From the NCBI RefSeq assembly GCF_026651875.1, contig NZ_CP104067.1, positions 1,674,001-1,738,000 on the forward strand: DNA of 64,000 bases, in the 5' to 3' direction. The notes under the pieces were generated by a model. That model was not told the DNA's origin. It did not search any database and saw only the letters and a program-made list of their open reading frames with translations. Numbering within the stretch: position 1 is the first letter of the stretch; every line of letters starts with the position of its first letter. Positions 18,003 to 23,466 of the stretch are shown piece by piece. The stretch comes from Alicyclobacillus fastidiosus. GTDB taxonomy: Bacteria > Bacillota > Bacilli > Alicyclobacillales > Alicyclobacillaceae. The translations under genes were made by a program, and so were the position numbers.

Positions 18003-18664
18003 GTGGATAATATTACCTTTAAGGCGTTTGCGATAACACATGAAATTAATTTAAACAAGATTGCAACTCATTGTGGTATTCCTAGAAAATTCACTTGGGA
18101 GCAACCCTTAATCTTATCAAAGGGTACTCTAAAATCTATCTTTCACAAGAATATAGATAAATCACAACGAATACTCGTTTTTTCCTTTGGAAGCGTTGTC
18201 TTCATTAATTTTATTAATTCCAATGAGATAAATATATTTTTAAATTTTATTCACTCCTTCGAACCTGATATTGATCTTAAGAATGCAGACAAATATACGG
18301 ACGATTATAGCCTCAACATTAGAGAAACTGAATTTATTAGGCTGACTGACGAGTACGTAGAAGTGCGTGAATATGAGAATTTTTACCCTGAATTAATTTC
18401 TACTGTACTTGCAAAATCGGTAGCACTCGAGAAAACAGAGGAACAACTAGAGAAAATCCTTGATAAGCTCGAAACTATGATTGACCAACTAGAAAAAGGA
18501 AAATTGAGAATTGGTAACAAGGAACTAGCAAGGACTACTGCTAAAATCTTACGTCACGAATATAATACGCTTGCGTATATCATGATTCTAGACAAACCTG
18601 ACATTACATGGAGCAGTAGCATCGCAAGTGAATTTTACGATAAGATGCTGAATTTTTTTGAATT
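18003..18664 (+). pseudogene. RMD1/YagE family (DUF155) protein, 5' part, split by IS
   Basis: The frame from the GTG at 18003 (AAGGTGAG upstream) encodes about 220 residues of a DUF155 protein: a FSFGSVVFINF block near residue 60 and a helical SVALEKTEEQLEKILDKLE segment near residue 139. It runs to FYDKMLNFFEL at 18664, where the IS begins. The missing C-terminus is found at 23277-23466. Relatives are membrane-anchored through a C-terminal helix and of unclear function in bacteria. Without the tail the protein would lose its membrane anchor. Confidence 0.88.
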
Positions 18665-19706
18665 GAGCGTTTTGCAGAATTGCGTTTCTCTGTGAAACGA
18701 AAAAAGAAGCAATACCAGCTTGAGGGTTTTAATTTACATTTTTTGTTTGTGCTGTATAGGTTTGCACATGCCCATGTCGGTAGCAGAGAGTCAGGAATCC
18801 TGTCCGATTATGCTGTTTTCAGTGCGTTCGCTATCGCGTTCATCGCCAGCGCAGAAGCAAGTAGAACAATCGTATTGAGATACGCGTATGTGGTCACCTT
18901 CTGAATGCCACGAATGTGCACATCGTTGACTGTAAGATTTTCTTTGAGCCGAGAATTACAACGCTCCACCGACGTTCGTTCATTGTAGAGCGCTGTCCAA
19001 CCCCGCGTATTTCGGTGCGGGTTCGCGTAACGTCTGACATCTTCGGTGATGCTTGTCTTGACCACCATTCCGTAGTTGGAGTCGGAGCAAGCTGCAATTC
19101 CAAGTGGGCAATCCACTTTACCAACGGCATGCGGACAGCGGAACTTTAATCGGTCACCGTCGGCTCCCCAATACACCATGTCGTAGCCCATTGAGCAGCG
19201 AGGTGTGCCATGATTGCCTGCGCGCCATAGCCACGGGCGGCTTCATAGTTTTTCACCTGGTCATAGCCAGCGTCCATCATGACGTATCTGACCTTCCAGC
19301 CATAGTTCTCGACGACTTCTTTCATGAGTGGAATTGCCATCTCACCGTCATACACATGAGCAGGTGTTACCTCCAAGGCTACCGGTAACTCGCTGGCAGT
19401 ATCCACTGCGAGGTGAATTTTGTAACCGAACCACGTGAGCTTGTTACCAAATGTGTCGTATTTGGCACCCCAGTTGGCGTTACCGGTTTCTTGGCTACGT
19501 GATTTCGGTTGCTTCTTCTGATATGAACGAGGATGTCAAGCACCACTACAACTCCCGCTGTGCCACTGTTCTAAAACAGGGATTTCGCGTTGCTTCACAT
19601 GGAGTGGCGGCTCCGATAGGCTGATTCGCCATACGGCCCTTCCGAGGCGCTCGTCCGGCATCACGTCGGGGCCGCAGAGGCTCCATGTCAAGCAACTAAC
19701 CTCGAA

Positions 19707-19903
19707 GACTCGGCACGAAGGCAAAAACTTCTCGACGGTGAGCATTCTGATATTCGTGGGTTGATTACCACAGTTAATCTCTCCGTCTAGAGGACCTGCC
19801 ACGAACTCATGGCGTGCGTTCGGTTCGCGAGGGCAATACCTAGCACAAGAAGAAAACGTGGGTTATCCTCCTACGGTTTACACTTTTGCCTTCGAGCCCA
19901 GTC
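19707..19903 (-). ncRNA. Predicted bridge (seek) RNA of IS110 copy A
   Basis: A long stem pairs 19707-19726 with 19884-19903 (18 of 20 positions). Inside are two arms. The donor arm is GACGG/CCGTC (19734-19738 / 19783-19787) with apex GTGG/CCAC (19756-19759 / 19768-19771). The target arm is CCACG/CGTGG (19799-19803 / 19857-19861) with inner GTGC/GCAC (19814-19817 / 19843-19846). The donor internal loop contains CTGATAT (19747-19753), identical to the core plus left end of this element, and AGTTA (19772-19776), complementary to its right end plus core. The target loop contains CTCAT (19806-19810) and AGAAGAA (19848-19854), which match the two sides of its own target. Copy B shows compensatory changes. 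The boundaries and strand are inferred. Confidence 0.82.
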
Positions 19904-19957
19904 TTCCAGTTTTCTCATTCAAGGTTCCCGGTGAACGCGGAAGTATAATTCTATTGG

Positions 19958-21070
19958 TTAAGCTTTATCTTTCTGCATTTGGCGTGCGATTGCCCACATG
20001 AACCCAGCTAATTCACGAGCGACTGCAGTTATAGCTTGATTAGAAGGTTTCCCTTTACTGACAAGGCGTGTGTACTTGTTATGGAGTCGATTTTGGGCCT
20101 TCCATGATATTCGTTGGACCTCAGCCGGCTGACCCTGTTGTCGTTTTCGAATTTCTCCTTTAACCGCCGGTCGATAGCGGTAACTCCAGGCTGACTCAAC
20201 CAGTACCCGTCGTAGATGTGTGTTTCCTGTCTTTGTAATTCTTCCTTTGCGTTTCACGCTACCGCTCGAGTGTTCACTAGGCACGAGCCCTGTATAACCC
20301 ATGAACTGACGCGGATTCACAAACCGTCTAAAGTCACCGATTTCTGCTACAATCGTGACTGCAGTGGTTTCCTTTACTCCTCGAAGAGATTGCAGTGCTT
20401 GGATAAGAGGGGCATGAGAACTTGTCTCTGCAGCATGATGAATCTCGGTCTCTAGTCGTTTGATTCGTTGCTCCACCTCATCTATGGCATGGAGATACTC
20501 GCGAAAAGTCACGTCTTCGTATCGATTTTCAAATTTCAAGGTGTCTAGCCATGCCCGATATCGAGTCTTCCAGGTGGTCATTTTTTGTTTGGGCTTAATA
20601 TCGTGACGAAGCAAAAACTTAGATAGACGGTGGCGCGCACGCAATTGGTCTTCTTTTGCATCCTCTCGCGCTCGTACTAAGTCTCGAATCCCTTCATCTT
20701 CTCTTGTCGGAACGTAGACTGGTGTGAGCTCTCCAGCTCGAAACAACTGAGCTAATCTCAATGCATCTCGACGGTCTGTCTTAATTCGCTCACCTGGCCG
20801 TTTCGGAATGAGGGTGGGTGCAACGACGATGCATCTAACCCCAAGTTGGGTAAGTAAGCGTTGTAACTCATAACCCGTGGGACCAGCCTCATAACAAGCT
20901 TCGATTTCACTTGCGTTTCCGAGCTTTGAAAACAGTTTGCGTACAGCTTCCGGAGTATTGGGCACTTCTCCGTAATATCTAGCCGCCTCACGACTTCCGA
21001 CATCTGCTATGGCCACCGCAATGAAATCCTTTGACACGTCTAAGCCCACGACTTTTGTGATATCCTTCAT
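19958..21070 (-). CDS. IS110-family DEDD recombinase, copy A
   Basis: 370 residues. The N-terminal RuvC-like DEDD domain shows VVGLDVSKDF (first Asp), ACYEAGPTGYEL (Glu) and KTDRRDALRLAQLFRAG (paired Asp region near residue 98). The C-terminal domain shows LRGVKETTAVTIVAEIGDFR, then GLVPSEHSSG, with a serine expected to act as nucleophile, and TKTGNTHLRRVLVESAW. GGAG precedes the ATG at 21070. Enzymes of this family integrate a circular element without target duplication beyond a dinucleotide core, guided by an element-encoded RNA. Confidence 0.95.
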   Translation of the reverse strand: MKDITKVVGLDVSKDFIAVAIADVGSREAARYYGEVPNTPEAVRKLFSKLGNASEIEACYEAGPTGYELQRLLTQLGVRCIVVAPTLIPKRPGERIKTDRRDALRLAQLFRAGELTPVYVPTREDEGIRDLVRAREDAKEDQLRARHRLSKFLLRHDIKPKQKMTTWKTRYRAWLDTLKFENRYEDVTFREYLHAIDEVEQRIKRLETEIHHAAETSSHAPLIQALQSLRGVKETTAVTIVAEIGDFRRFVNPRQFMGYTGLVPSEHSSGSVKRKGRITKTGNTHLRRVLVESAWSYRYRPAVKGEIRKRQQGQPAEVQRISWKAQNRLHNKYTRLVSKGKPSNQAITAVARELAGFMWAIARQMQKDKA

Positions 21071-21801
21071 ATTATCGGCTCCTTCACAGTGTAGCTCTGG
21101 TCGGTCACATCTACTGGTAATTCTCTTTACTCAGCAGTATGGCCACTAACCTACGAGAATGTGACATGGAGCCGAACCTCGTTCATGATAACTCATAGGC
21201 GCCAATCGCTGTACTGTCAATCGCAAGATGAGTTCCGTCGATGATGCCGGAATCTTTGCATTGACTGACCAGGTCAATAAAGAGTTCCTTAGCAAGATCC
21301 TTATCCACTACAGCGTTGAAGACTCGACTGATTGTGGCGATTGACGGTGGGCGTTTATCCACCCGAAACCCGCATTGGTACCGGAAACGTAGGTCGCTAT
21401 CCAAACGGTTATGTAACTGGGTAAAGGTTGAAATTCCTTCAAGTGGAGCAACGAGCAATGCTCGCAAAATTGCTTCACGATTGATAGGCTTTGCACTCTG
21501 GGGTGACGAATTGCTGAACTTTACCGCGTATTGCTGAAGATCCAGGGCAGCAAAGAACAGTTCAAGCCGCTCGCTGGGTTCGATTTCTAACCATTGCTCA
21601 AAGGAAAACAGAGACTTTTGGAGAAGATACAAGTGGACTTCCCTCCTGTCGAGGTTTCTTGTTTGGTCACTTGAAATCTTCTCGATGTTGGGGTGAAGTC
21701 CTTTTTTATGTTCTGTTATCCCTTGCCCTGCAAGGGCTCAGAAATCTGCAAAACGCTGTTATGAACGAGGCCTGTCAAGCCCCGTATTTCATGGATTTAT
21801 T

Positions 21802-21986
21802 GAAGGTCAGGCGCCGAAGGCAAGTTATATCGACGGTTGGCATTCTGTTATTCGCGGATTGGCTACCGCATGTCGTACCTCCGTCAAGGGCTGCCTCTGA
21901 CTCAAAGCGTGCATTCAGATAGGCCTAGCACATAGCGTTTACGAGGGTTCCCTCTTCCGGAAACTTGCCTTCGCCGCCCGACCTTC
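21802..21986 (-). ncRNA. Predicted bridge (seek) RNA of IS110 copy B
   Basis: A 25-base stem (21802-21826 with 21962-21986) pairs at 23 positions. The donor arm is GACGG/CCGTC (21832-21836 / 21881-21885) with apex GCGG/CCGC (21854-21857 / 21866-21869), where copy A has GTGG/CCAC. The target arm is CCTC/GAGG (21894-21897 / 21943-21946) with inner GTGC/GCAC (21909-21912 / 21928-21931). The donor loop holds CTGTTAT (21845-21851), identical to the core plus left end of this element. The target loop holds CTCAA (21901-21905) and AGCGTTT (21934-21940), matching the two sides of its own insertion site. The second donor guide (TGTCGTA at 21871-21877 against AGTCATA) is imperfect. Confidence 0.82.
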
Positions 21987-22032
21987 AAATAAGTAAGCTC
22001 GTAGAATAAGTGTACCGTGATCGAATTCTTAT

Positions 22033-23166
22033 TTAAGCAATCGAATTTGTGTTTTCTTTATCCCGCATTCGTTCCGCCATGCACCCAATTGCCCAGATAA
22101 ATCCTAATAATTCTCTTGCCACTGCTGTTACAGCAACGGAGTGATTTTTGCCTCTAGAAATCAAACGAAAATATTTACGGTGCAATCTATCTTGAGCCTT
22201 CCAAGCAATTGCTTGTGTCTGAGGTGATTGCCCTTCTTGTCGTTGTTTAATTCGACCTTTTATTGCAGGTGAATAACGATAACTCCACGCGGATTCGGCT
22301 AGAATGTGGCGAACATGTGCATTCCCTGTTTTGGTTATCCCACCTTGCCAACGATTTGCACCACTAGAGTATTCTCGTGGGACTAGTCCTGCGTAAGCCA
22401 TAAGTTGCCTAGGATTCGAGAAGCGGGAAAACTGCCCAATTTCCGCAACCAATGATGTTGCGGTGACCTCAGCGACACCACGAAGTGTCTGTAAAGCTTG
22501 AATGACAGGAGCGTGGAAGCTATCTGTTGCCTGAACATGAATTTCTTGTTCTAATCGCTGAATACGTCCATCAATTTCATCCAATTGGTGTAGGTATTCT
22601 TGGAATGCCATCCTCTGAGCGCGATTCGTAAATTGTAAGGTATCCAGCCACTTGCGATGTTTCGGTGTCCAATTGCGTATACCCTTTGGTGTGCGAAGAC
22701 CCCATCGTAACAAGAATTTCAACAACCTATGTCGAGTACGCAATTGATCTTCTTTAGCGTCCTCTCTTGCACGTACTAGATCTCGAAGTCCCTCGTCATC
22801 CTCTTGCGGCACCCATACACTCGTCAATTCTCCCGCTCGTAATAACTGCGCCAGACGTAATGCGTCTCGACGATCAGTTTTTACTCGATCCCCCTGACGC
22901 ACTGGGATTAGGGAAGGGGCAACTACCATACATGACAAACCCATCTTGGTTAGTTGGCGATACAATCCATATCCTGTAGGTCCCGCTTCATAGCAAAATT
23001 CCAATTGTACGTCGTTTCCTAACTGCCTAACCAATTTACGAATTGCTTCAGGATTATTTGTAATTGTTCCAAAAAACCGCGGGGCACCACGCCCTATGTC
23101 TGCTATGCCCACCGCAATCGAATCCTTTGACACGTCTAAACCTACGAATTTTGTGCTATCCTTCAT
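22033..23166 (-). CDS. IS110-family DEDD recombinase, copy B
   Basis: About 377 residues, a clear homologue of the copy A enzyme with the same motifs: FVGLDVSKDS, EFCYEAGPTGYGL, KTDRRDALRLAQLLRAG, LRGVAEVTATSLVAEIG, GLVPREYSSG and TKTGNAHVRHILAESAW. The ATG at 23166 follows GGGAGCCGATAAT, the same leader as in copy A, and is preferred to the ORF-extending start 11 codons upstream. No lesion is visible, so it may be active. Confidence 0.95.
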   Translation of the reverse strand: MKDSTKFVGLDVSKDSIAVGIADIGRGAPRFFGTITNNPEAIRKLVRQLGNDVQLEFCYEAGPTGYGLYRQLTKMGLSCMVVAPSLIPVRQGDRVKTDRRDALRLAQLLRAGELTSVWVPQEDDEGLRDLVRAREDAKEDQLRTRHRLLKFLLRWGLRTPKGIRNWTPKHRKWLDTLQFTNRAQRMAFQEYLHQLDEIDGRIQRLEQEIHVQATDSFHAPVIQALQTLRGVAEVTATSLVAEIGQFSRFSNPRQLMAYAGLVPREYSSGANRWQGGITKTGNAHVRHILAESAWSYRYSPAIKGRIKQRQEGQSPQTQAIAWKAQDRLHRKYFRLISRGKNHSVAVTAVARELLGFIWAIGCMAERMRDKENTNSIA

Positions 23167-23276
23167 ATTATCGGCTCCCTTCGTATTGTAGCTCTGCATT
23201 GGCTATCGCTAGTAACAGTATTGCCAATGTAACCTACGTTGTTACGAAACGGGGCCGACCTCGTTCATTATGACTC

Positions 23277-23466
23277 AATTAAATGATCGGTATAAAATTT
23301 TAAAAAGCAAAACAGAAATTTTATATAACATCATGGAAGGTTTCTCCACGATTAGCCATTCAATTCGGGGACTGTTCGTTGAATGGATTGTCGTAATTCT
23401 TATTGTTTTCGAAATCGTTCTCACGCTTTTGGGGGTTATAGGGTGGCTCCCCCAAAAAGGGAGCTA
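23277..23466 (+). pseudogene. RMD1/YagE family (DUF155) protein, 3' part
   Basis: Directly after the AATT duplication the frame reads NDRYKILKSKTEILYNIMEG, then a membrane helix EWIVVILIVFEIVLTLLGVI near the C-terminus. This is the typical tail of DUF155 proteins and completes the fragment at 18003-18664. The apparent start ATG at 23270 lies in the IS end and is probably accidental. Confidence 0.88.

What the first reader, a model, noticed from the sequence alone, without database searches (positions are those of the whole stretch)
19747..19854. Guides in the copy A RNA match its own target and own ends
Target-loop strands contain CTCAT (19806-19810) and AGAAGAA (19848-19854). The actual insertion site reads TTCTTCT on the left, including the CT core, and CTCAT on the right. 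The donor loop contains CTGATAT (19747-19753), identical to core plus left end (19518-19524), and AGTTA (19772-19776), complementary to the right end plus core. All four sit on opposite strands of internal loops, as expected for RNA-guided targeting. AGAAGAA is low-complexity, so that match alone is weak.
Basis: seen in the sequence. Interest (0 to 1): 0.9.

Follow-up and report, generated by a model that had tools for sequence, protein, structure and literature searches.

The report
RNA-guided IS1111 insertion sequence
A small bacterial jumping gene carries an RNA whose short guide stretches match the place where it inserted and its own ends; this kind of RNA-guided element was described in 2024, and relatives in which guide and insertion site change together show that it is at work here.

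Summary
All sequence statements in the finding are correct at the given coordinates, and its reading holds. Copy A (19520-21193) is an IS1111-group element of the IS110 family. For copy A taken alone the match is no better than chance. Copy B (21758-23275) has other guides that match its own site. Both sit in one IS1182-family element, A in its transposase gene, B in its terminal repeat. This is the bridge RNA / seekRNA system published in 2024: a new member of a known kind. By-product: copy A also holds a covarying hairpin of about 105 nt, apparently an RNA of the opposite strand, without a match in Rfam and found in 26 of 59 genomes of the order.

The parts
19520..21193 (-). Copy A, an IS1111-group insertion sequence (1674 bp, IS1111 convention: 7 bp outside the left and 3 bp outside the right subterminal repeat)
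   Evidence: ends read; five copies in the genome; empty sites in sibling hosts
19958..21070 (-). Copy A transposase, 370 aa
   Evidence: Pfam DEDD_Tnp_IS110 and Transposase_20; NCBIfam NF033542, 275.9 bits, cut-off 140
19709..19899 (-). Guide (bridge/seek) RNA as modelled; outer stem of copy A about 19718-19895; true ends unknown
   Evidence: 28 related RNAs, 33 covarying pairs; coordinates
19848..19854 (-). Right-target guide (RNA TTCTTCT), pairs with target 19513-19519
19806..19810 (-). Left-target guide with core (RNA ATGAG), matches target 21192-21196
19747..19753 (-). Right-end donor guide (RNA ATATCAG), matches right end plus core 19518-19524
19772..19779 (-). Left-end donor guide (RNA GATTAACT), complementary with one extra base to AGTTATC at 21187-21193
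21177..21193 (-). Left end: AGTTATC plus subterminal repeat ATGAACGAGG
19520..19532 (-). Right end: subterminal repeat CCTCGTTCAT plus ATC
19518..19519 (-). Target core AG (CT on +) at the right junction; the other copy is 21192-21193
   Evidence: empty sites
19534..19539 (-). TTGACA, possible -35 box of the promoter made when the ends join (with TATCAT at 21185-21190, spacing 17)
   Evidence: read; inference from the published circle-junction promoter
19592..19696 (+). Covarying hairpin between guide RNA and right end (model R1)
21758..23275 (-). Copy B, second IS1111-group element (1518 bp)
22033..23199 (-). Copy B transposase, 388 aa as listed
21807..21979 (-). Copy B guide RNA as modelled; target guides at 21934-21940 (RNA AAACGCT) and 21901-21905 (RNA TTGAG), right-end donor guide 21845-21851
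18665..21757 (-). IS1182-family host element, terminal repeat GAGCGTTTTGCAGA at 18665 and its partner ending at 21757 where copy B splits it; AATT on both sides

Best explanation
Copy A is an IS1111-group element whose DEDD/serine recombinase uses its own RNA, transcribed on the transposase strand downstream of the gene, to find its target. One loop of the RNA pairs with both strands of the target (three bases, then A and N of the core, then five bases; here ATG-AG-AAGAA); another region pairs with the two element ends (ATATC-AG and AG-TTATC). The element leaves as a circle whose joined ends make a promoter, and inserts without any duplication beyond the AG core. Shown here: anatomy, conserved RNA structure, likely strand, guide-site covariation, empty sites. 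Inferred from published relatives: RNA-protein binding, the circle, the exchange at the core.
For: Guide-site match in 38 elements / 22 guide sets, beyond all 5000 permutations for both guides. RNA structure covaries: 97.5% of cells paired against 89.0 shuffled and 33-47 slid, 18 two-sided pairs against 7.9 shuffled. Family: Pfam, NCBIfam RNA-guided IS110, solved IS621 and ISCro4 transposases at E 7.5e-19. Guide order and position downstream of the gene as reported for IS1111 (PMC11187229). Uninterrupted sites in sibling hosts show insertion without duplication beyond AG.
Against: Copy A alone does not beat chance. 4 of 40 elements do not have the slot as best 9-mer; L013 matches 5 of 8 right-guide positions and L003, L005, L032, L108, L109 match 6 of 8. 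Ten exact ATGAGAAGAA sites outside the host are empty, so the guide is not the whole story. No RNA was measured. Fold energy of single sequences does not favour the chosen strand: copy A equal on both strands, copy B better on the opposite one (-51.9 against -48.2).
Confidence: 0.95

Rival explanations
1. The matches are chance hits of short, partly low-complexity words.
For: For copy A the anchor-free scan is tied and its control equal.
Against: 38 elements with 22 guide sets match at one aligned slot, beyond 5000 permutations for both guides.
Confidence: 0.01
2. The site is chosen by protein-DNA recognition, and the non-coding region merely carries target-like words captured from old sites.
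For: Exact 10-base sites outside the IS1182 host are empty in this genome, so something besides the guide acts.
Against: Words for both sides sit at fixed places of a conserved RNA structure and stop at the same positions in all groups; published IS1111 relatives were redirected by changing the RNA and flanks (PMC11187229).
Confidence: 0.03
3. The RNA is made from the + strand.
For: Single-sequence folds: copy A -55.8 on both strands, copy B better on the opposite strand. On pairs shared by both strand folds G-U exceeds A-C only 11 to 4.
Against: 28 RNAs folded together: -41.1 transposase strand, -36.3 opposite; on the transposase-strand structure 81 G-U and 4 A-C cells, 28 and 4 without two nearly invariant U-G pairs; the place and guide order are those of IS1111 RNAs (PMC11187229).
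Confidence: 0.03
4. The copies of A share sites only because the host IS1182 element was copied with A inside.
For: The window copy and L001 have host flanks identical over both query stretches.
Against: L003 and L004 lie in diverged hosts (80% and 92% on one side, 71% and 83% on the other) and L005 at a different site: at least four events. One search counted guide sets, not copies.
Confidence: 0.02

Closest known systems
IS1111-group elements with seekRNA (ISEc11, ISKpn4, ISPa11, ISPst6; Siddiquee et al. 2024, PMC11187229; parts 1-3 of 9 and passages read)
   Same: DEDD transposase with long non-coding region downstream; subterminal repeats with 7 and 3 bp outside; RNA with the top-strand complement before the bottom-strand match; no extra duplication
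   Different: Transposase 370 aa against 330-350 aa given there; extra hairpin between RNA and right end; target gene and guides new
IS621 and bridge RNA of the IS110 group (Durrant et al. 2024, PMC11208160; passages read)
   Same: Target and donor guides in loops of one RNA; related recombinase
   Different: There the RNA lies upstream of the gene, and the subterminal repeats are 2-3 bp
IS4321 and IS5075 (Partridge and Hall 2003; title seen in reference lists; paper not read)
   Same: IS1111 members that target the terminal repeats of another mobile element, as copy B does
   Different: Their host is the Tn21 family; here an IS1182-family element carries one IS1111 in its terminal repeat and another in its gene

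Membership tests
IS1111 group of the IS110 family | DEDD N-terminal domain and Transposase_20 C-terminal domain | tested here: met
IS1111 group of the IS110 family | Subterminal inverted repeats, usually 11-13 bp | tested here: met
   11 of 12 in copy A; 10 bp perfect core
IS1111 group of the IS110 family | 7 bp outside the left and 3 bp outside the right repeat, no duplication beyond them | tested here: met
   empty sites
IS1111 group of the IS110 family | Long non-coding region downstream of the transposase gene with a structured RNA | tested here: met
   RNA inferred, not measured
IS1111 group of the IS110 family | RNA guide complementary to the top strand precedes the one matching the bottom strand | tested here: met
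   if the RNA is on the transposase strand
IS1111 group of the IS110 family | Transposase length 330-350 aa (range given in PMC11187229) | tested here: not met
   370 aa; the paper gives this as an observed range, not as a criterion
IS1111 group of the IS110 family | Circular intermediate and RNA bound to the transposase | not testable with these tools
   needs experiment
IS110 group (IS621-like) | Long non-coding region upstream of the gene | tested here: not met
   the RNA lies downstream
Bridge RNA (target and donor loops) | Guides for both element ends that change with the ends | tested here: inconclusive
   right-end guide agrees in 36 of 38 by my reading, but nearly all ends are identical; few informative changes
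Rfam families | Match to a curated RNA family | tested here: not met
   window at gathering scores: 0; 19500-19960 at E up to 1: 0

The most novel reading that the evidence does not exclude
A-type IS1111 elements carry, beside the guide RNA, a second structured RNA on the opposite strand (19592-19696 +). It would belong to an undescribed hairpin family of this bacterial order that also sits at intergenic places and at the end of transposase-like genes, and that acts on the expression or mobility of its carriers.
Probability: 0.3. Interest if true: 0.5.

Novelty: new member of a known kind. Interest (0 to 1): 0.35.

Why it matters
One genome holds several IS1111 groups with different guides and sites, and uninterrupted sibling sites. 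That makes a natural data set for the targeting rule of IS1111 elements (three bases, core A and N, five bases) and suggests that the second core base of the target may differ from that of the donor. It also shows two separately guided elements settled in one IS1182 host. The mechanism itself was published in 2024. The hairpin is the part that may be new.

Tried and rejected
Chance could not be excluded from copy A's own sequence, so relatives were used. A first left-guide comparison was one base out of register and weak (1.11 against 0.77, null maximum 1.23); the register was corrected from copy A's AG core. Guide-site mismatches were too few to decide the strand, so structure pairs were used. 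Selection of elements: one search scored 170 loci (duplicates included), 100 passed with up to three mismatches in each end motif, 40 distinct elements passed with at most one on each side, and L036 and L106 were dropped because the RNA region is deleted; more distant relatives were not tested. The window's copy A (L002) has the same 60-bp flanks as L001 and is represented by it. The idea that the hairpin is an ordinary repeat of this genome found no support: model R1 hits only the five A copies there, though only 65 of 422 first-look candidates were scored. Structure prediction was not run. Papers: five searches; I recognised none on the hairpin in those listings, which is no proof of absence.

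Full report
1. Observation. Every letter and coordinate in the finding is right. In transposase orientation (minus strand) the target reads ATG-AG-AAGAA; the element runs from 21193 down to 19520 and reads AGTTATC-ATGAACGAGG at its left and CCTCGTTCAT-ATC at its right end.

2. What it is. The gene at 19958-21070 (minus) carries DEDD_Tnp_IS110 and Transposase_20 and passes the NCBIfam model 'IS110 family RNA-guided transposase' (275.9 bits, cut-off 140). A profile of it and nine relatives finds the solved IS621 and ISCro4 transposases (E 7.5e-19 each). A second such element, copy B, lies at 21758-23275. It has five copies of A and further copies at 59-63% protein identity.

3. The test. Ends were found by motif, without the guides: 40 distinct elements, 38 of which keep the RNA, in 22 guide sets. 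Guide slots come from an alignment anchored on copy A; an offset of up to one base was allowed alike for real and permuted right-guide pairs. Right-guide match at positions 1-10: 0.95, 0.93, 0.93, 1.00, 0.99, 0.95, 0.90, 0.49, 0.22, 0.11; across groups 0.97, 0.51, 0.29, 0.50, 0.42, 0.26, 0.24, 0.26, 0.21, 0.15. Left-guide match at -1 to -6: 1.00, 0.88, 0.62, 0.41, 0.20, 0.04; across groups 0.42, 0.29, 0.28, 0.29, 0.20, 0.08. No permutation of 5000 reached the observed means. Of 38 elements, 16 match 8 of 8 right-guide positions, 16 match 7, five match 6 (L003, L005, L032, L108, L109) and one matches 5 (L013), counted from the table. Examples: copy B guide AAACGCT, site AGCGTTT; L024 guide TTTGACGCT, site AGCGTCAAA; L102 guide ACGTAGACT, site AGTCTACGT.

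4. Weaker side. Without an anchor the slot is the unique best 9-mer in 29 of 40 elements, tied in 7, not best in 4; mean best score 7.45 against 6.73 for a same-strand control; copy A is tied with an equal control. The claim rests on the set, not on copy A alone.

5. RNA and strand. 28 distinct RNAs share 33 pairs in 7 helices: 97.5% of cells paired (shuffled 89.0, slid 33-47), 18 pairs changed on both sides (shuffled 7.9; 0 of 500 reach it). The structure was derived from the same sequences, which favours it. Strand: joint folding -41.1 on the transposase strand against -36.3; 81 G-U against 4 A-C cells, 28 against 4 without two nearly invariant U-G pairs; on pairs shared by both folds only 11 against 4. 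Single folds do not help: copy A equal, copy B better on the opposite strand. Place and guide order agree with published IS1111 RNAs (PMC11187229: parts 1-3 of 9; passages). So the strand is well supported, not proved.

6. Donor guides. The right-end guide agrees with the right end in 36 of 38 elements by my reading of the table (not in L031 and L032). Nearly all share ATATC; the informative case is copy B's group, where both read ATAAC. The left-end guide changes with the left end between the two main types and in L105 and L108; this was not tested statistically.

7. Site and host. A and B lie in one IS1182-family element: three gene pieces match NF033551 below its whole-protein cut-off; terminal repeat GAGCGTTTTGCAGA with AATT on both sides. 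Four of five A copies lie in such hosts; six uninterrupted sites of the host pattern remain, shown for siblings. Copy B and L007 abut the host terminal repeat, uninterrupted in siblings. Exact ATGAGAAGAA stands uninterrupted at 11 places, one of them in a host relative; the backward control has 6. Three filled sites have the exact 10 bases (the window copy, L001, L004), all in hosts. Selection or further preference may act; the numbers are small.

8. Core. In several own-genome and related groups the second core base of the site is A or T (12 of 38 elements: L013-L015, L017, L031, L032, L055-L058, L062, L068), while the left junction reads AG in all of these, and the right guide follows the site (position 2: 0.93 against 0.51). 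Target and donor core seem free to differ there. Inference, not checked on empty sites.

9. Hairpin. Between RNA and right end, copy A and seven A-type relatives carry a hairpin of about 105 nt (window 19592-19696). It covaries, and the G-U / A-C balance favours the strand opposite to the transposase (shared pairs: 9 against 1). Model R1 hits 26 of 59 genomes of the order at E up to 0.001; in the own genome only the five A copies (not exhaustive). In 24 distinct sequences 95.4% of cells pair and 18 of 31 pairs change on both sides (shuffled 9.6); 56 G-U against 6 A-C. That alignment is fitted to the model, which leans it that way. In 6 of 20 fetched loci the hairpin abuts the end of a transposase-like frame that I take from recall for IS3 type. 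No Rfam match at the hairpin of copy A or in 5 of those 20 loci.

10. Verdict. The finding is right and well supported, but the system is known (PMC11187229; PMC11208160, passages only). New member of a known kind; interest 0.35.

Noticed in passing
window 19592-19696 (+); L233-L252: Covarying hairpin of about 105 nt, apparently RNA on the strand opposite to the copy A transposase, in 26 of 59 genomes of the order, without Rfam match; in 6 of 20 fetched loci it abuts a transposase-like frame.
   Followed up: partly
window 18665-23279: Two IS1111 elements with different guides in one IS1182-family element: A in its gene, B in its terminal repeat; AATT on both sides of the host.
   Followed up: yes
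L014-L017, L055-L058, L062, L068: Other IS1111 groups target AACGGGC or ATCGGGGG words, several inside short repeats of the form TTGCGCTAACGGGC...GCGCAA, with a second core base unlike the donor core.
   Followed up: partly
L036, L106: Related elements with intact-looking ends but with the guide RNA region deleted wholly or in part.
   Followed up: no
L007, L008, L027-L029, L098, L105, L109: In this subgroup the right-target guide ends one base further from the conserved TGTGC-like motif, so the loop register differs between subgroups.
   Followed up: no
window 18003-18695: A 230-aa reading frame ends inside the IS1182 terminal repeat, so its original end was probably replaced by the host element.
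   Followed up: no
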